From positions 1 to 64,000 of the forward strand of contig NZ_VORT01000003.1 in the NCBI RefSeq assembly GCF_007997155.1: a DNA stretch of 64,000 nucleotides, in the 5' to 3' direction. Each line of letters opens with the position of its first letter. Position 1 is the first letter of the stretch. The DNA comes from Aequorivita antarctica (GTDB lineage: Bacteria > Bacteroidota > Bacteroidia > Flavobacteriales > Flavobacteriaceae). This document shows, one piece after another, positions 30,761-37,469 of the stretch. Both the position numbers and the translations under genes were made by a program. Under the pieces are notes generated by a model, which searched no databases, was not told where the DNA came from, and saw nothing but the letters and a program-made list of their open reading frames with translations.

Positions 30761-31198
30761 TTATTGAAAAGAACTATAAGCAAATTCCAAGGTTTCAATA
30801 GTTATATTATTTTCGGGATTTACATCCGAAACAGTCCACTTTACGGGATAGGCATTCATAAAAACCCATGATTTGAGTGGGATTCCATCGGTATCCAACA
30901 AATTTACAATTATATCCTTGGGCTTTATGGAATCTTTCGGATTAGCATTAAAAGTATTAATACACCAAATAACAATTTCAGAATTTTTTGACACTAACCC
31001 TTTTTTTAGTATTAGGTTTGAGTATTTTATAGAATTAGGCGCACGATATTTGTAGTTATTGTTTCCGATTTTTGTCATTTCTTCTGTCCCCATTTCCATT
31101 GTAATTCCAGAAATTTCTTTAAAAAACACTTCATCTTTTCCAGATGTATTTCTAAGACTTAGTTGAAAATAAAATGCAACGGGAGGGTGATTGTTCAT
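30761..31198 (-). CDS. gp19-like tail-tube protein (third copy, outside the repeats)
   Basis: A 145-residue T4 gp19-like (phage tail tube) protein, closely related to the tube protein at 35650-36096. Shared landmarks are PVAFYFQLSL, FKEISGI/FKEVSGI, EMG-EE, NLILKKGLV/NLVLKRGLV, the SEI-WC segment and the C-terminal ETLEFAYS. In contractile injection systems such subunits form the inner tube. It lies downstream of the left direct repeat with its pseudo-tRNA, apart from the rest of the cluster, so it may be transcribed separately from a duplicated leader. Confidence 0.85.
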   Translation of the reverse strand: MNNHPPVAFYFQLSLRNTSGKDEVFFKEISGITMEMGTEEMTKIGNNNYKYRAPNSIKYSNLILKKGLVSKNSEIVIWCINTFNANPKDSIKPKDIIVNLLDTDGIPLKSWVFMNAYPVKWTVSDVNPENNITIETLEFAYSSFQ

Positions 31199-31294
31199 TA
31201 GGAACGATTTTTATAATTTAAAAAAAAAGTGTCCCTAATAGAATAATTTACTGATTATAAGTATTTTAAAAATTATTAGGAGAACTTCATACCC

Positions 31295-31493
31295 ATAATA
31301 TTAACTATAAAAAGACTTAGTTCCTATAAGTAGTACTACGTAAATTTAATTCACAAAAAACCCGAAGAGAAACACTCATCGGGCGTGAAAATCATGAAAT
31401 TTGTGAAATTATTTATAGTGGGTAATACTGGATTCGAACCAGTGACTTCCACGTTGTCGACGTGACACTCTAAACCAACTGAGTAATTGAACC
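31295..31493 (-). repeat. left direct repeat: leader block, terminator and pseudo-tRNA-Val
   Basis: About 199 bases alignable end-to-end with 37234-37409: an ATAATATTA start, TTCCTATAAGT...TACTACGTA, a CCCGA...TCGGG terminator (31355-31383), then a tRNA-Val-like sequence. It flanks the injection-system genes on their downstream side and precedes the isolated tube gene. The gap 31199-31539 holds this repeat and otherwise AT-rich DNA with no gene. Confidence 0.85.
31420..31493 (-). pseudogene. tRNA-Val pseudogene
   Basis: Identical to the intact tRNA-Val at 37336-37409 at 70 of 74 positions. All four changes fall in the acceptor stem or its junction: the 5' arm reads GGTTCAA against 3' ATTACCC, giving three mismatches out of seven pairs. 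The anticodon, D and T arms are unchanged. It is therefore unlikely to be a working tRNA. Confidence 0.8.
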
Positions 31494-31539
31494 AAAATCT
31501 TAAAACATCAAAGTTCAAAAAATGGTATATTTAATGGAG

Positions 31540-31929
31540 TTAACCAACCTCACACTTCACCTGTCCCGCATGTTCAAAAGTTATAACCCCACCCCACATA
31601 CAATTTAAAGAACAGGTATTGTTTAAAGTGGGCATATTGGCAAGCATTACTGTCGGGCTTCCAGGAGCCCAAGGCGCTACTGTTGCTGGTATGCAAGGCA
31701 TAGGCGTTAAAACCCCCAAAGCGGCAGTTGTAGCGGCAGCAACCGTAGGGTTGGCTATAGAAGAACACATTCCAAAAGGAAGAATATTTACTAAAGGTTT
31801 ATTGTCTAAAATAGTGGCGGCAGGCATACTGCTGGTCATTACCCTATTTGCAGGCAACACAATTAATGTGGAAGGGGCAATACCAAAAGAACACCTTATT
31901 GTGGCTCCCATACATACTTGCTTTGGCAT
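31540..31929 (-). CDS. PAAR-like DUF4280 tip protein
   Basis: 129 residues rich in small residues with repeated Cys and Pro (MGATIRCSFG, GMCSSIANP, TPMPCIPATVAPWAPGSPTV, NNTCSLNCMWGGVI). This matches the DUF4280/PAAR-like family, whose members cap the spike of type VI and extracellular injection systems. It starts 2 bases after the AAA ATPase stop and is the last gene inside the repeats. A plus-strand frame over the same bases is a shadow. Confidence 0.88.
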   Translation of the reverse strand: MPKQVCMGATIRCSFGIAPSTLIVLPANRVMTSSMPAATILDNKPLVNILPFGMCSSIANPTVAAATTAALGVLTPMPCIPATVAPWAPGSPTVMLANMPTLNNTCSLNCMWGGVITFEHAGQVKCEVG

Positions 31930-31931
31930 AA

Positions 31932-33272
31932 TTATATGGTTTTATTTTGTTTTCTATATACGCTACGTATTCCTGTAATAATATCGTTTAGCAATACTTT
32001 TTTTTCGTTTCTTCTTGCGGCTTGCAAAGCGCAATAGCGTAGCACCTCTGTAATTTCGCCCCCTGTAAGTTCGTATCTCTCTGCAAGATCATCTAAATCT
32101 ATGAAAGATTCTAGTTCAAAATTTTCTTTGAAAAGATGTTCCCACAATAATTTTCGTTGCTGCGAGTCTGGTGCTGAAAAATGCACCATATTCTGAAAAC
32201 GTCTAGTAAAAGCTGCATCTATATTGTTTTTTAAATTGGTTGAAAGAATTACCAAACCTGAAAAATCCTCAATACGCTGCAACAAATATGCAACTTCTTG
32301 ATTCGCGTAACGGTCATGGGCATCTCTTAAATTAGTTCTTTTTCCGAAAAGTGCATCGGCCTCATCAAAAAAGAGTATCCAGTCTTTCTGTTGGGCTTCA
32401 TCAAAAAAACGACTTAGGTTTTTTTCGGTTTCACCTATATATTTTGAAACCACCAGAGATAGATCTACCCTATAAACAGGACGATTGGTTTCCTTACCCA
32501 GCAAACTGGCGGTTAGTGTTTTGCCTGTGCCAGAAGGGCCGTAAAATAATGCGCGATACCCCTTTTTAAAATTATTTTCGAAATTCCATTCCTTTAAAAT
32601 CTTTGGGCTATGTTTAAGCCAATCCTTTATTTCTAAAATCGCTTCGGTTATAGCTGCTGCTACAACAAGGTCTTCCCATTTTAAAGCAGTGGTAATTTGA
32701 TTTGCAGGAAATATAGTGCTGTATTGCGGCAAATGTTTTTTACCCATTGTAAAAAGACCATAATATTCTGAAGAAATTTGAAGTTTTTGATGAACTCCAA
32801 ACTGTTGTTGAGCATCTATTTCTAAAATCCCTTTTTTGAACAATATATTTTCTGTGTTGGTTGTTGCCAAAAGTTTTAATCGAGTAGTAAGGTTGTAGCC
32901 ACCCAGAATAAAATACGCTGTTTCTAAAGTGGGGGTAAAACCTGGTTTATTTGCGTTATTAATTCCTCCAAATTCTGAAAAGCCAGAATTCAAGTTTTGG
33001 TTTTTAATTAAAAACACATCTAAAACGTCAGGTTTTAAATAGGGAATCATCGCTAAAATTAGCATTAGCCTTTCTTCAAAACCCAGCTGTAACTCTTTCA
33101 CTATTTCAGCATAAGGCGAGCTGTCTTTATCTAAATCTGGAGGCGCTATAGCGTAAACAGATTTTTGGTTGCTTTCATTTTTAAAATACAACGCCAGGCT
33201 AGTATCTACAACACTTTTAAACCAGTTAATTTCTTTTTGAAGTGTTTTTGCTAATTTTTCTATTACCTCCAT
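31932..33272 (-). CDS. AAA+ ATPase of a contractile injection system (Afp15-like)
   Basis: A 446-residue protein with a C-terminal AAA+ domain: Walker A GPSGTGKT (245-252), Walker B ILFFDEAD, sensor-like STNLKNNID and the arginine segment FTRRFQN. The N-terminal domain resembles those of eCIS ATPases, which help assembly. The frame opens at 33326, but ATG 33272 fits better because the longer version would run far into the preceding gene. It overlaps that gene by 10 bases, so the pair is coupled. Confidence 0.88.
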   Translation of the reverse strand: MEVIEKLAKTLQKEINWFKSVVDTSLALYFKNESNQKSVYAIAPPDLDKDSSPYAEIVKELQLGFEERLMLILAMIPYLKPDVLDVFLIKNQNLNSGFSEFGGINNANKPGFTPTLETAYFILGGYNLTTRLKLLATTNTENILFKKGILEIDAQQQFGVHQKLQISSEYYGLFTMGKKHLPQYSTIFPANQITTALKWEDLVVAAAITEAILEIKDWLKHSPKILKEWNFENNFKKGYRALFYGPSGTGKTLTASLLGKETNRPVYRVDLSLVVSKYIGETEKNLSRFFDEAQQKDWILFFDEADALFGKRTNLRDAHDRYANQEVAYLLQRIEDFSGLVILSTNLKNNIDAAFTRRFQNMVHFSAPDSQQRKLLWEHLFKENFELESFIDLDDLAERYELTGGEITEVLRYCALQAARRNEKKVLLNDIITGIRSVYRKQNKTI

Positions 33273-33793
33273 GTTACATTTAGTGTTTTCTGCATCCAAC
33301 CTAATTTTATTGTAGTGATATTCCACGGAATTTGATCCAATAGCATGTCAAAAGCCTTCTGTTCTACTCTCAAGAAATAGGCGTCGGCATCTTCTTCAAG
33401 TCTTCCTTTCCGTTGAAGAAAAGTTTCTTGTAAACCTGCGATTGAGGTTTGGCCAAGTACAGTCCATTGCTGGATAACCGCAAGCAACAAGCTTTCAACC
33501 AGTTCTTTATCCGTATCACTCAATGTAATTGATAAATCTATGGGAGTTTTTATACTAATGCCGCAGAGCACTTTATGGATTACCAAATCCTGCTCATTCA
33601 CTATTGTGCTTCCGGCAGCAGCATATTCAAGTAAATGAATGGCTTTATATAAACTTTCAGCATCTCTAAATCTACTGTCTTGCATTAGCCCAGATTTTTC
33701 AAATAACATTGGCAGAAAAGGAGCAATAATTATTAATCCTGCACTGTTTATTAATAATGAGTCCAAAAATTCACGATCTACTTGTTCACTCAT
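33263..33793 (-). CDS. short tape-measure-like protein (CIS_TMP C-terminal domain only)
   Basis: A 176-residue protein that matches the conserved C-terminal part of eCIS tape-measure proteins (Afp14/Pvc14-like): NSAGLIIIAPFLPMLFE, a HLLEYAAAG segment, VIHKVLCGI, LLLAVIQQWTVLGQTSI, LQETFLQRKGRL and the C-terminal WMQKTLNVTW. Normal members are several hundred residues or more, so the long N-terminal region is absent. It starts 30 bases after the VgrG stop, leaving no room for a longer version. The assignment rests on recalled family patterns. Confidence 0.75.
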   Translation of the reverse strand: MSEQVDREFLDSLLINSAGLIIIAPFLPMLFEKSGLMQDSRFRDAESLYKAIHLLEYAAAGSTIVNEQDLVIHKVLCGISIKTPIDLSITLSDTDKELVESLLLAVIQQWTVLGQTSIAGLQETFLQRKGRLEEDADAYFLRVEQKAFDMLLDQIPWNITTIKLGWMQKTLNVTWR

Positions 33794-33823
33794 TTTTTTA
33801 TGTTATTTAAATCTTTTTCTAAA

Positions 33824-35608
33824 TTAATTAATATTAACCATGGCTCCTTTGGCTGATAAGTTTCCATCGCTGGAGATGGTACATTCGGCTCCACCTTTAA
33901 CACTTGTTGACATATCGCCGGTTATTGCAACATTTGCTGCTGTGACTTTTAAAGACGCTTGACCCTTTATACTCACATTGCTACCTTCAATCTTAACATC
34001 TTCCGCAGCTTTAATATGTATGCTTTTAGAACTTTCTAATGAAATTCCTTCGCTGCTCATTTCTATCTTATTGCTATTTTGATCTAAGATTGTAATTTTT
34101 TTAGCGTCATCACTTAATATCATCGTATTTCCACTAGGCGTAAGAATTGTTATTATTTTATTTTCATCATCAAACTTTAACTGCAGTTTGTTTTGCGTAA
34201 TCAATGCTTTAATTGAATTATTTTCATCTGGAATTTCGGGTGCTGGGTTGGCGCTGCTGTAAACACTTCCCAAAATAATGGGAAACCGTGGGTCTTCGTT
34301 CATAAAGCCCAGTAAAACCTCATCTCCTACTTCTGGCATAAAATAGGCGCCAATACTTTTACCTGCATAAAAGGTTGCCAATCTAGCCCAAACCGCTTCA
34401 CCTTCTGCCCCGAGAAGTGGAATTTCAACCTGCACGCGAAATTGGTTTTCGGGATCTTCATACATTTTTTTTACGATTCCTGTTTGCAATCCCTTTACGC
34501 CCGGCAGCAATCCGGATGCTTCAGGTGCTGAAATACGATATTCTTCTGAAAACCATTCCGCAGCCATTCCTATTTTTACTTCCGTATGCCATTGGCCATC
34601 TTCAACAGTATGGATAACCCCAGAAACAAAAGCATTGCCGTTAAAACGACTGCTCAATCCTTCTAATTTTATTGTTGAATTTACTTTCGCTTTTGAAGAA
34701 CCTTGAAAAACCAACGTTCCTCTAAATTGAGACAATCGTGATTTCAGTAAGGCCGCATCAGACCAAACGTGGATATCTTCGCTGGTAATTCCAGTAGATG
34801 AATTTAAGTTGTTGGTTTTGCCACCAAGCACTTCAGAAAGTTTTTTTCCCGTTAAATTGCCTTGTTTGTTTACGCTAGGTTCTGTGGATACAGCATTGAT
34901 TGTATTTTGGGCACTCATATCCCAAGCATTTGCCGTGGTCCCGTTATATTGATTTGTAGCGTCCATTTCTACATCAAATTCAATAATATCATTCCCAAAT
35001 TGCAACTGTAATTCTGGACCTGCAGAAACATTTGGCTTTGCTAAAGTTAGTTTTCCGCTATCGGTAATTACAATCATACCGTTTGCTTCTGCGCGGCTAA
35101 TTATGAAGTCCCAATCTGTAGCGTAAAATTGAACAATTTCTTTGTGTTCTACTGTAGTTGCAGAGATAGCTGTAGATAAACCGTTGTTGCCCACAATTTT
35201 TTCAATTGCCGCACTGTCTTTCATGTCTGTAAAAATGGCACTGTTTCTATTAATCGCCATTTTTAGTGCTTTGTCTTTGCAAGTAATTGTTAAAGTGCTT
35301 CCAGATACAGAATCGGCATTAATTTTTTGTTTTACTACAATCCCTTTAAAAATACTTTCGTTTTTACTGTGATAGCCTAGTTTTATTTCTATCTCGGCCC
35401 CAGGCACAAAGCTATTCGACTCTGCAATTTCAAAGGTTTGCGAAGCAGGATTTCCGTCAAACAATACAATTTTTGCTTCTGCTATTTGGTTTAGGTGTTG
35501 TTCCAATTTTATGGAAACTACCTCGTAAGTACTAGGTATTTCTTTTCCTCCGGAAAGGATTGAAAACGAGAGTAAATTTGTTTCTTCAGTTAAAGGTGAG
35601 GTTGGCAT
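33824..35608 (-). CDS. VgrG/gp5-gp27-like spike protein
   Basis: 594 residues with the three-part spike layout. First comes a gp27-like hub domain (residues 1-330, late-control D type, with VPGAEIEIKLGY and FYATDWDFI). Next is an OB-fold domain at about 365-455 (RVQVEIPLLGAEGEAVWARLATFYAG, EVGDEVLLGF, LGSVYSS). Last is a beta-helical needle of short repeats (about 480-594). It would pierce the target membrane and carry the DUF4280 tip. It lies between the tube and tape-measure genes, as in eCIS loci, but without gp25 or wedge genes. Confidence 0.9.
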   Translation of the reverse strand: MPTSPLTEETNLLSFSILSGGKEIPSTYEVVSIKLEQHLNQIAEAKIVLFDGNPASQTFEIAESNSFVPGAEIEIKLGYHSKNESIFKGIVVKQKINADSVSGSTLTITCKDKALKMAINRNSAIFTDMKDSAAIEKIVGNNGLSTAISATTVEHKEIVQFYATDWDFIISRAEANGMIVITDSGKLTLAKPNVSAGPELQLQFGNDIIEFDVEMDATNQYNGTTANAWDMSAQNTINAVSTEPSVNKQGNLTGKKLSEVLGGKTNNLNSSTGITSEDIHVWSDAALLKSRLSQFRGTLVFQGSSKAKVNSTIKLEGLSSRFNGNAFVSGVIHTVEDGQWHTEVKIGMAAEWFSEEYRISAPEASGLLPGVKGLQTGIVKKMYEDPENQFRVQVEIPLLGAEGEAVWARLATFYAGKSIGAYFMPEVGDEVLLGFMNEDPRFPIILGSVYSSANPAPEIPDENNSIKALITQNKLQLKFDDENKIITILTPSGNTMILSDDAKKITILDQNSNKIEMSSEGISLESSKSIHIKAAEDVKIEGSNVSIKGQASLKVTAANVAITGDMSTSVKGGAECTISSDGNLSAKGAMVNIN

Positions 35609-35649
35609 AGGTTTGTATTTTAATGGGTTTCTTGGCTGTCTGTTTGGGG

Positions 35650-36096
35650 TTAAAATACTTTAAAATAGCTGTAAGCAAACTCCAGACTTTCAATAATCAA
35701 TTCATTACTTCCTGAATTTAAATCTGAAACCGCCCATTTTACGGTCCAAGCATTAACAAAACTCCAAGATTTAATAGGATTTCCGTTTTCATCTAACAAC
35801 TTTACAATTATGGTTTTGGTTTCTACCAAATCGTCAAGATTGCCGCCCAAAGTTTTATTGCACCAGGTTATTATTTCAGAATCCTTGGGTACCAAACCGC
35901 GCTTCAAAACTAGGTTCGAGAATTTTACAGAAGTAGGAACACGATGTTTGAACATGTTGTTGCCGCCTTCAGCAATTTCCTCCACGCCCATTTCCATTGA
36001 AATTCCAGAAACTTCTTTAAAAGCAGCATCCTCGTTTGCAGATACATCACTTAAACTGAGTTGAAAATAAAAAGCAACGGGAGCAAATTCATTCAT
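35650..36096 (-). CDS. gp19-like tail-tube protein, second copy
   Basis: A 148-residue gp19-like tube protein, paralogue of the one at 30761-31198 and more distantly of 36099-36554. It contains PVAFYFQLSLSDVS, FKEVSGISMEMGVEE, RVPTSVKFSNLVLKRGLV and ESLEFAYSYF. eCIS loci often carry two or three tube variants, some specific to the baseplate end. It starts 2 bases after the stop of the upstream tube gene. Confidence 0.88.
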   Translation of the reverse strand: MNEFAPVAFYFQLSLSDVSANEDAAFKEVSGISMEMGVEEIAEGGNNMFKHRVPTSVKFSNLVLKRGLVPKDSEIITWCNKTLGGNLDDLVETKTIIVKLLDENGNPIKSWSFVNAWTVKWAVSDLNSGSNELIIESLEFAYSYFKVF

Positions 36097-36098
36097 TA

Positions 36099-36554
36099 TT
36101 ATCCGTTTTTAATAGTTAAACCTTCATGGCTGAGTTCTAAAGTTTCTACAGCAACTTCGTTTGCATCCGCTTTCATATCGGTACCTGTTATCTTGGTTGG
36201 CCAAGCATTGGTCAATGTCCACGTCATTGTAGGGCTACCTGTTTCGTCCAAAAGCTGGATGGTTACAGTTTCCTTTGTTATGGTGTTCATTTTTACAGCA
36301 TCAAACCATCTCCAGAAATTGTTGTCGTTTACAAAGATTCCCCTCTTCAAGGTTACATTTCCAGTTTTTGTAATACCCGGCATTTTTATGGTAGAAAATA
36401 ATTTATTATCCCCATGCCTATATTCTATGGGCTGTGTTTCTGTTTCCAAACCTGAAACTTCTTGAAAGGAAACTGTATTATCTTGTGAACCCAAACGTAC
36501 ACTAAAGTAAAACTTGGGTAAAGGCCAATTACCGTCTTGTGCTTCTCCTGCCAT
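36099..36554 (-). CDS. gp19-like tail-tube protein, first copy (Afp1/Pvc1-like)
   Basis: 151 residues with PLPKFYFSVRLG, VSFQEVSGLETETQPIEYRHG, TGNVTLKRGIFV and a C-terminal VETLELSHEGLTI. This is closer to the main tube subunit type (Afp1/Pvc1) than the other two copies. In a complete locus a sheath gene normally precedes it; here the DUF4255 gene lies only 40 bases upstream. It would form stacked hexamers around the lumen. Confidence 0.88.
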   Translation of the reverse strand: MAGEAQDGNWPLPKFYFSVRLGSQDNTVSFQEVSGLETETQPIEYRHGDNKLFSTIKMPGITKTGNVTLKRGIFVNDNNFWRWFDAVKMNTITKETVTIQLLDETGSPTMTWTLTNAWPTKITGTDMKADANEVAVETLELSHEGLTIKNG

Positions 36555-36594
36555 TTTTTTATATTTTAAATTTTTATTTTACTATTAATGAACT

Positions 36595-37152
36595 CTAAGG
36601 GTTTGTAACCGGAGGTATTTCTTTTTTTATTCGGTCTTCCTGCAGTGTTATAATTCGTGCCCTGTAAACTATTGAAGGTATATAATTAGCCCCAATGCTG
36701 CTCCAAATATGGCTCAATTCTGTGATTGGCACATTGTATATTTCCAGTGTCAATTTCTCCAATGGTGCCGCCATATTGGGATGTTCATTTTTGGCGAAAT
36801 AAGGATTTGCTTGAAATGAAGTAATTACGGTCGAAAGCATTTTAAGGGATTCCAAATAATTTGAGGAACTGTAATTTGCCGAGATTAACAAGTATAGATT
36901 AAGATTTATTGGTGGTGCAACTTTACCATACAAATTGCCAGCTGTTGGTTTATAATTGCTCAATGATTTTGAAAAGGTTTCCTGTTCAATATTTATAACC
37001 GAAACCACAATCTTGTTTTCAATATTTTTAGAAACTGAACCATCTGGATTCACTAAACTGCTAGCTATTACAACATCTGAACTTAGACCGTAGACCATTT
37101 TTAGTTCCTGATTTAGGAAATCTGTAATGATGTTTAAAGCTTTATCAATCAT
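36595..37152 (-). CDS. DUF4255 (Pvc16/Afp16-like) cap or terminator protein
   Basis: A 185-residue protein of the DUF4255 type: IDKALNIITDFLNQEL at the start, NKIVVSVINIEQE, INLNLYLLISANYS and a C-terminal YRARIITLQEDRI. In Afp/PVC particles this family ends the tube and sheath at the distal end. It is the first gene of the injection-system operon, about 85 bases after the end of the right direct repeat. Confidence 0.85.
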   Translation of the reverse strand: MIDKALNIITDFLNQELKMVYGLSSDVVIASSLVNPDGSVSKNIENKIVVSVINIEQETFSKSLSNYKPTAGNLYGKVAPPINLNLYLLISANYSSSNYLESLKMLSTVITSFQANPYFAKNEHPNMAAPLEKLTLEIYNVPITELSHIWSSIGANYIPSIVYRARIITLQEDRIKKEIPPVTNP

Positions 37153-37257: not shown

Positions 37258-37282
37258 GATTCCTATAAGTGCTACTACGTAT
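37258..37282 (-). promoter_or_regulatory. conserved leader block of the injection-system operon
   Basis: The sequence TTCCTATAAGT, two variable bases, then TACTACGTA (plus strand) is kept in the copy at 31319-31342. There a perfect palindrome GTAGTACTAC (31330-31339) is formed. Both copies lie 105-125 bases before a start codon of a tube or cap gene. It may be an operator or promoter region, but it does not match TAnnTTTG. Confidence 0.35.
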
Positions 37283-37324: not shown

Positions 37325-37335
37325 TAAAATTTTGT

Positions 37336-37409
37336 GGGTCATACTGGATTCGAACCAGTGACTTCCACGTTGTCGACGTGACACTCTAAACCAACTGAGT
37401 TAATGACCC
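37336..37409 (-). tRNA. tRNA-Val (anticodon GAC)
   Basis: Full cloverleaf: acceptor GGGTCAT/ATGACCC, D stem ACTC/GAGT, anticodon stem TCACG/CGTGG with loop TCGACAA, T arm ACTGG-TTCGAAT-CCAGT. The anticodon GAC reads valine. CCA is not encoded. Position 33, normally U, is C here; the pseudo-copy has the same base. Confidence 0.9.
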
Positions 37410-37469
37410 TTTCTTTTAAAACACCAAAATACAAATTCCAAAAACCAAAACAAACATCAAAACTGAAAG

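What the first reader, a model, noticed from the sequence alone, without database searches (positions are those of the whole stretch)
30761..37152. Reduced contractile-injection-system cluster without sheath or baseplate-wedge genes
Read on the minus strand, the order is DUF4255 cap, tube, tube, VgrG spike, short tape measure, AAA+ ATPase, DUF4280 tip, then a further tube gene. These families are hallmarks of eCIS (Afp/PVC/MAC). A working eCIS needs a contractile sheath, a gp25-like protein, wedge proteins and a LysM adaptor, and none is encoded here or elsewhere in the window. The remaining genes are intact, with 2-10 base spacings or overlaps, so the set looks maintained rather than decaying. 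It could be a sheathless tube-spike device, or half of a system split over two loci.
Basis: partly seen in the sequence, partly recalled or inferred. Interest (0 to 1): 0.85.

Follow-up and report, generated by a model that had tools for sequence, protein, structure and literature searches.

The report
Baseplate-less remnant of an injection machine
These eight genes are what is left of a complete phage-tail-like injection machine that lost its sheath and most of its base in pieces beside a tRNA gene; the leftover parts still look protected by natural selection, so they may be doing something other than contractile injection.

Summary
The eight genes are real, intact and correctly named. The cluster is collinear with a complete eCIS in another Flavobacteriales genome (G163) but lacks three blocks; the 'short tape measure' is the C-terminal domain of a ~1,380-aa protein. 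It lies between tRNA-Val and murF. The genome does have a sheath, an orphan gene of another lineage on another contig, but no convincing gp25, J2 or LysM adaptor; J1 is unsettled. So it is not a contractile injector by itself nor, by ancestry, half of a split one. Nor is it plain rubbish: VgrG dN/dS is 0.12-0.13 among three species sharing the reduced form, the orphan sheath 0.08-0.17 in eight, and a 22-bp upstream element marks all 12 occupied sites. Best reading: a deletion-derived tube-spike module under residual selection, slowly being lost; its present function is unshown.

The parts
37334..37409 (-). tRNA-Val (GAC), upstream border of the locus; ARAGORN finds it at this site in 21 of 26 Aequorivita genomes examined
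37260..37281 (-). conserved 22-bp element (TACGTAGTAGCACTTATAGGAA) upstream of cap; probable promoter or operator (function inferred)
   Evidence: present with up to 3 mismatches at all 12 occupied sites; 0.01 matches expected by chance in the window
36595..37152 (-). cap / tail-terminator protein (Pvc16_N, DUF4255 type)
   Evidence: 4.5e-34; groups with G001, G163 and G119 caps
36099..36554 (-). T1, main inner-tube protein
   Evidence: 4.8e-48; profile A2 hits AlgoCIS, Afp1 and Pvc1 tube chains
35650..36096 (-). T2, tube-initiator type tube protein
   Evidence: Pvc5 1.1e-16 against Pvc1 1.2e-7
33824..35608 (-). VgrG spike
   Evidence: 56% identical to the VgrG of a complete eCIS in G163
33263..33793 (-). 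TMPc: C-terminal domain only of the eCIS tape-measure protein
   Evidence: profile 298-463/463; the TMP frame is 1380 aa in G163; model mean pLDDT 86
31932..33326 (-). AAA+ ATPase (Afp15 type); overlaps TMPc by 64 bp as listed, the true start may lie further in
   Evidence: 58% identical to the AAA next to TMP in G163
31540..31929 (-). DUF4280 PAAR-like spike tip
   Evidence: 8.8e-36; 81% identical to the G163 protein in the same order
31418..31519 (-). second tRNA-Val copy (102 nt, 88% identical to 37334-37435); direct repeat enclosing cap to DUF4280
   Evidence: Rfam tRNA 40 bits; not called by ARAGORN
31321..31342 (-). second copy of the 22-bp element, upstream of T3
30761..31198 (-). T3, third tube protein (tube-initiator type)
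   Evidence: 1.1e-29; relatives at the same site in G013, G019, G005

Best explanation
The locus is an internal-deletion derivative of a complete extracellular contractile injection system (eCIS) that sat behind a tRNA-Val gene in the Aequorivita lineage. Three blocks are gone from the ancestral order: the gene after cap plus the sheath; a small plug-like gene plus the LysM adaptor; and gp25, J1, the next gene, J2 and the N-terminal two-thirds or more of the tape measure. What remains could make at most short non-contracting complexes: T1/T2 rings on a VgrG trimer tipped by DUF4280, with the TMP C-domain, ATPase and cap (inferred). It cannot fire like an eCIS. The remaining genes were kept intact and under purifying selection for some time after the loss, behind a conserved upstream element, while relatives keep losing pieces down to a tube pair or one tube gene. 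Shown: ancestry, missing blocks, recurrence, selection signal. Inferred: that the proteins are made, that they assemble, and that the retained role is secondary or transitional.
For: Collinearity with G163 and G119 complete clusters, including TMP-AAA-DUF4280 order. Trees: window T1, VgrG and cap group with G163/G119 and not with the genus's other eCIS; support of the group is 99/99 in T1, 91/91 (with G163) in VgrG, 89/96 in cap. G001 has cap-sheath-T1 at the same site. Differing subsets at the site in 12 of 26 genomes. Homologous VgrG-TMPc and T2-VgrG junctions in G000, G010, G018, and what reads as an AAA deletion scar in G010 and G018. A plug-like frame fills the T2-LysM gap of G163, G119 and G017 (named by position; not compared with Alg6 by sequence), and the 31-41 bp T2-VgrG gaps of G000, G010, G018 have no room for it. 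Deleting the plug abolished particles in AlgoCIS (PMC8894135, passages). dN/dS: VgrG 0.12-0.13, T1 0.13-0.19, T2 0.18-0.25 in the three reduced species. 22-bp element at all 12 occupied sites, with 0-1 mismatches in the 10 genomes with intact T1 and 2-3 in G022 and G005. C-domain-only TMP genes outside the genus are open in 7 of 8 genomes fetched.
Against: TMPc, next to the largest deletion, has low synonymous divergence (dS 0.24-0.26) and dN/dS 0.27-0.49, while VgrG has dS 0.54-0.73. The deletion may thus be younger than the VgrG divergence, or have spread by recombination, so part of the VgrG constraint may predate it. In the more reduced species the tubes look relaxed: T1 0.29-0.97, T2 0.27-0.51. 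T2 is broken in G016 and T1 in G022. G001, with the sheath, has no ARAGORN-called tRNA-Val(GAC) at the site. No expression or particle data. Absence of J1 was not tested with a suitable profile.
Confidence: 0.72

Rival explanations
1. Functional sheathless tube-spike device: T1/T2/VgrG/DUF4280 form a rigid spike-tube that carries cargo or punctures membranes without contraction, assembled with TMPc, AAA and cap.
For: Low dN/dS, homologous deletion junctions, and VgrG, TMPc and DUF4280 ORFs intact in 3 of 3 genomes; conserved upstream element; cluster synonymous divergence (pS) is mostly below that of the flanking genes, which could mean exchange between species.
Against: Only 3 of 28 genomes keep the spike at this site; 8 of the 12 occupied genomes keep tube genes alone. 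Plug and LysM adaptor are missing, and the plug is needed for assembly in AlgoCIS (PMC8894135). No cargo gene was identified (none was searched for systematically). The low pS is weak evidence: genes around the orphan sheath have pS as low (0.28-0.58).
Confidence: 0.14
2. One part of a dispersed contractile system: the orphan sheath on C66, and undetected baseplate genes, complete the machine.
For: All 3 genomes with the T1-T2-VgrG-TMPc-DUF4280 form also carry the orphan sheath; over 28 genomes sheath2 and site-T1 co-occur (6 both, 2 sheath only, 4 T1 only, 16 neither; Fisher p 0.011; p 0.003 without three genomes under 90% complete), uncorrected for kinship.
Against: The orphan sheath is a different lineage from the sheath found at this site in G001. 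Strong gp25, J2 and LysM hits occur in the same 11 of 28 genomes and not in G000, G010 or G018. G016, a single-contig genome rated 100% complete, has tubes and orphan sheath without them. G011 has the orphan sheath and no tube hit.
Confidence: 0.07
3. Plain decay: the genes are functionless leftovers and the selection signal is inherited from when the eCIS was complete.
For: Differing subsets between species, broken T1 or T2 in G022 and G016, relaxed dN/dS in the most reduced forms, 13 of 26 sites empty without relics.
Against: Under simulated neutral drift at the observed divergence VgrG and the orphan sheath would carry about 16-17 stops per lineage, with 0 of 400 runs intact, yet 3 of 3 and 8 of 8 copies are open. 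The 22-bp element is kept wherever T1 is intact.
Confidence: 0.2
4. Interference role: tube (and orphan sheath) proteins poison assembly of related eCIS particles or phage tails in the same cell.
For: The commonest retained set is a tube pair, which alone could co-polymerise with related tubes (inference); stand-alone sheath kept in 8 of 28 Aequorivita genomes and in one genome of another genus.
Against: No direct evidence; two of the tube-pair species (G004, G017) also carry a canonical eCIS.
Confidence: 0.05

Closest known systems
Complete AlgoCIS-type eCIS (Algoriphagus AlgoCIS, PMC8894135; here G163 and G119 loci)
   Same: Cap, T1, T2, VgrG, TMP C-domain, AAA, DUF4280 homologous and in the same order as in G163 and G119; T1, T2 and VgrG match AlgoCIS chains.
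   Different: No sheath, plug-like gene, LysM adaptor, gp25, J2 or TMP N-terminal part in the cluster.
Orphan hcp-vgrG-PAAR islands of type VI secretion (PMC13098142, passages)
   Same: Tube-spike-tip genes without the rest of the machine, scattered in genomes.
   Different: eCIS lineage with TMP domain, cap and AAA; derived by internal deletion in place; no complete partner system with J2, gp25 or LysM found in this genome.
Canonical Aequorivita eCIS (J2, gp25 and LysM hits in 11 of 28 genus genomes; two, G017 and G020, laid out gene by gene)
   Same: Same overall kind of machine.
   Different: Different eCIS lineage at another location; complete in G017 and G020; not found in this genome.

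Membership tests
eCIS (as a working contractile machine) | Inner tube, spike, PAAR-like tip, cap, AAA ATPase | tested here: met
eCIS (as a working contractile machine) | Contractile sheath in the cluster | tested here: not met
   only an orphan sheath of another lineage on another contig
eCIS (as a working contractile machine) | gp25, LysM adaptor and J2-type wedge in the genome | tested here: not met
   only sub-threshold hits (E 0.09 or worse, and an S30AE protein)
eCIS (as a working contractile machine) | J1 (Afp11-type) wedge protein in the genome | tested here: inconclusive
   PF04865 finds nothing, but it also misses the J1 of the closest complete locus
eCIS (as a working contractile machine) | Full-length tape measure | tested here: not met
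   columns 298-463 of 463 only
eCIS-derived gene cluster (by ancestry) | Tube, spike and cap nest in trees with complete eCIS, same gene order | tested here: met
Type VI secretion orphan island | Hcp/VgrG of T6SS lineage with a T6SS elsewhere | tested here: inconclusive
   Best solved relatives are eCIS chains; T6SS genes were not searched for directly; the only gp25-family hit is the S30AE protein
Contractile particle | Particles seen by microscopy | not testable with these tools
   -

The most novel reading that the evidence does not exclude
A domesticated, non-contractile tube module: in Aequorivita and neighbours, eCIS tubes (with or without spike and the tape-measure C-domain) and a stand-alone sheath gene have been kept as separate genes, at one site behind a conserved upstream element, some beside tRNA or tmRNA genes, performing a new function that needs no baseplate.
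Probability: 0.3. Interest if true: 0.8.

Novelty: new variant of a known kind. Interest (0 to 1): 0.5.

Why it matters
It is a natural series of deletions of an injection machine, caught at several stages at one chromosomal site, in which most of the parts needed for contraction are gone while tube, spike and a lone sheath elsewhere are kept under selection. It makes testable whether eCIS tubes do something useful without contraction. It also warns that counting tube, VgrG or cap genes overstates the number of working eCIS.

Tried and rejected
Tried without result: structure search of the TMPc model (pLDDT 86.2) gave no Foldseek hit at E <= 0.001 and VIA-align best Z 2.6; no PDB sequence hit for the TMP profile at E <= 1. 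A Bacteroidota-type promoter pattern (recalled, from no call) was no more frequent than chance (9 against 6.8 expected). The apparent gp25 at C22:208350 is an S30AE ribosome-hibernation-type protein, rejected.

Rejected: 'no sheath in the genome' (one search finds one). The orphan sheath as this cluster's native sheath, rejected by the tree. Sheathless order as an original design, rejected by G001 and G163. The idea that an assembly gap explains the missing parts: unlikely, since G016 (one contig, rated 100% complete) shows tubes and orphan sheath without J2, gp25 or LysM.

A slip found on checking: 'stops inside' counts stops in the whole matched stretch, also upstream of the gene (the window's own intact TMPc is flagged so). 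On reading the frames again, C-domain-only TMP genes outside the genus are open in G111, G391, G359, G262, G218, G293 and G278, and shortened in G363 alone.

Literature, by search listings only unless stated: no paper held both 'contractile injection system' and 'Aequorivita', none with 'sheathless', none with eCIS + incomplete + tail tube + sheath + loci; related searches. Passages read: PMC8213781, PMC8894135, PMC10598620, PMC13098142. That nothing on this was found in print rests on these searches of a partial library.

Rows dropped: G003 and G006 were not examined for site occupancy (no murF orthologue matched; murF on a cut contig). In G008 YitT was not found near murF, so it counts as 'no eCIS hit', not as a proven empty site. 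G009 was left out of the sheath bootstrap (7 of 8 rows used; one search used all 8). The gp25 profile also hit G002 (3.6e-4) and, weakly, seven further places besides the 11 strong ones at E up to 1 in other genomes and one in G000; G002 has an eCIS of yet another type.
Full report
What is there. The eight ORFs are as described and each matches its family. T1 (36099-36554) is the main-tube type, while T2 (35650-36096) and T3 (30761-31198) are the tube-initiator type: for T2 Pvc5 scores 1.1e-16 against Pvc1 1.2e-7, for T3 6.7e-13 against 2.5e-6. The tape-measure gene covers only columns 298-463 of 463 of PF19268. The spacing claim needs correction: T3 lies 341 bp from DUF4280, and that gap holds a second tRNA-Val copy, 88% identical over 102 nt to the one upstream of cap. 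So tRNA copies enclose cap to DUF4280.

The organism.

The rest of the genome. A sheath gene of 521 aa lies on C66; a second VgrG-PAAR-TMP set (TMP 270 aa) on C22; a lone tube gene on C43. gp25, J2 and the LysM adaptor gave no convincing hit: Pfam gp25 only an S30AE protein, the genus gp25 profile E 0.28, LysM E 0.09 and 0.12, J2 none at E 0.001. The controls rang: strong hits of the last three profiles fall in the same 11 of 28 genus genomes, of which I laid out two gene by gene (G017, G020). PF04865 found no J1, but it also misses the J1 of the closest complete locus, so that negative carries little weight.

Ancestry. In G163, same order and another family, a complete cluster reads cap-337-sheath-T1-T2-(plug-like)-LysM-VgrG-gp25-J1-251-J2-TMP-AAA-DUF4280, with identities to the window of 47, 78, 63, 56, 58 and 81% for cap, T1, T2, VgrG, AAA and DUF4280. 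Its TMP frame is 1,380 aa. G119 is similar. In trees, window T1, VgrG and cap fall with these systems and apart from the canonical Aequorivita eCIS (inner forks of the T1 and cap groups are unresolved, and several supports are below 95). The window is this order minus three blocks.

The site through the genus. The locus lies between YitT with tRNA-Val and murF. Of 26 genomes examined, 12 have eCIS genes there: G000 eight genes; G010 and G018 T1-T2-VgrG-TMPc-DUF4280; G009, G004 and G017 T1-T2; G016 T1 plus a broken T2; G013 and G019 T1-T3; G022 a broken T1 plus T2; G005 T3 alone; G001 cap-sheath-T1. In 13 the gap is 34-245 bp with no relic at E 0.01, and in G008 no eCIS gene was found. tRNA-Val(GAC) is called at the site in 21 of the 26, but not in G001. 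G001's sheath groups with those of G163 and G119 (100/100). So the ancestral cluster at this site most likely had a sheath. VgrG-TMPc and T2-VgrG spacers are homologous in G000, G010 and G018, which points to shared deletions, and G010 and G018 carry what reads as a scar of a later AAA deletion.

Is it maintained? In the three species with the spike, dN/dS is 0.12-0.13 for VgrG, 0.13-0.19 for T1, 0.18-0.25 for T2, 0.06-0.34 for DUF4280 and 0.27-0.49 for TMPc, against 0.06-0.16 for murF and 0.03-0.05 for YitT over the genus pairs that could be scored. Neutral simulation at the observed divergence gives about 16 stops per lineage for VgrG (0 of 400 intact). Against this, TMPc dS is only 0.24-0.26, so the deletion beside it may be younger than the VgrG divergence or may have spread by recombination. 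Cluster pS is mostly lower than that of flanking genes, but genes around the orphan sheath are as low. In the tube-pair species G004, G017 and G009 the values are relaxed (0.27-0.97). A 22-bp element, TACGTANTANNACTTATAGGAA, precedes the first gene at all 12 occupied sites, and in the window also T3. It has 0-1 mismatches where T1 is intact and 2-3 in G022 and G005. It was found nowhere else in the 260 sequences held, 2.27 Mb with overlaps; 0.01 matches are expected by chance in the window. That it is a promoter or operator is inference.

The orphan sheath. Eight of 28 genus genomes have it beside the same GNAT gene; dN/dS 0.08-0.17 in all 28 pairs. A 55% identical gene beside a shortened TMPc occurs in a genome of another genus of the family (G363). 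It is a clade apart from the site's sheath in G001 (100/99). It co-occurs with site-T1 more than expected (Fisher p 0.011 over 28; 0.003 over 25), without correction for kinship.

Beyond the genus. Of 395 genomes of the order, 43 have a TMP match. I fetched eight genomes outside Aequorivita with C-terminal-only or late-starting matches; the C-domain gene is open in seven (G111, G391, G359, G262, G218, G293, G278) and shortened in one (G363). G391 has a 346-aa gene, T1, T2 and TMPc with no sheath or spike in the stretch, within 4 kb of a tmRNA gene, as has G020's second locus. Of the 11 non-Aequorivita loci found with the VgrG profile, 10 carry a nearby sheath and one is a 3.5-kb contig too short to tell.

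How it most likely works. Without plug, LysM adaptor and wedges there is no platform on which a sheath could assemble; in AlgoCIS plug loss alone abolished particles (PMC8894135, passages). The most the products could form is short tube-spike complexes (inferred). I judge the locus a deletion derivative still under residual or secondary selection; a working sheathless device is possible but unsupported by direct evidence. The odds given to the readings overlap and do not sum to one: the device, decay and interference rivals all accept the same ancestry and differ on present function.

Noticed in passing
L002:17002-18567 (own genome C66): Stand-alone eCIS sheath gene conserved beside a GNAT gene in 8 of 28 Aequorivita genomes with dN/dS 0.08-0.17; also in genome G363 of another genus beside a shortened TMP C-domain.
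   Followed up: partly
L031:14535-17707 (own genome C22): Second VgrG-PAAR-TMP set; the TMP is 270 aa and lacks the middle of the profile.
   Followed up: partly
window 31418-31519 and 37334-37435: Duplicated tRNA-Val(GAC) region enclosing the cluster, like the borders of an integrated island; no integrase was looked for.
   Followed up: partly
L033:9751-11246 and L228:9453-10903: Two reduced T1-T2-TMPc sets in different genera both lie within 4 kb of a tmRNA gene.
   Followed up: partly
L227, L229, L233: Lone open TMP C-terminal domain genes (172-195 aa) with no other eCIS gene found in the 20-kb stretch in three more genomes of the same family.
   Followed up: no
L006:2565-3365 (own genome C22): 266-aa orphan protein weakly similar (E about 1e-5) to the protein encoded between cap and sheath in complete eCIS.
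   Followed up: no
L110:9698-10150 (own genome C43): Lone tube-initiator gene beside the same two small genes as a T1-T2 pair in G027 (L112).
   Followed up: no
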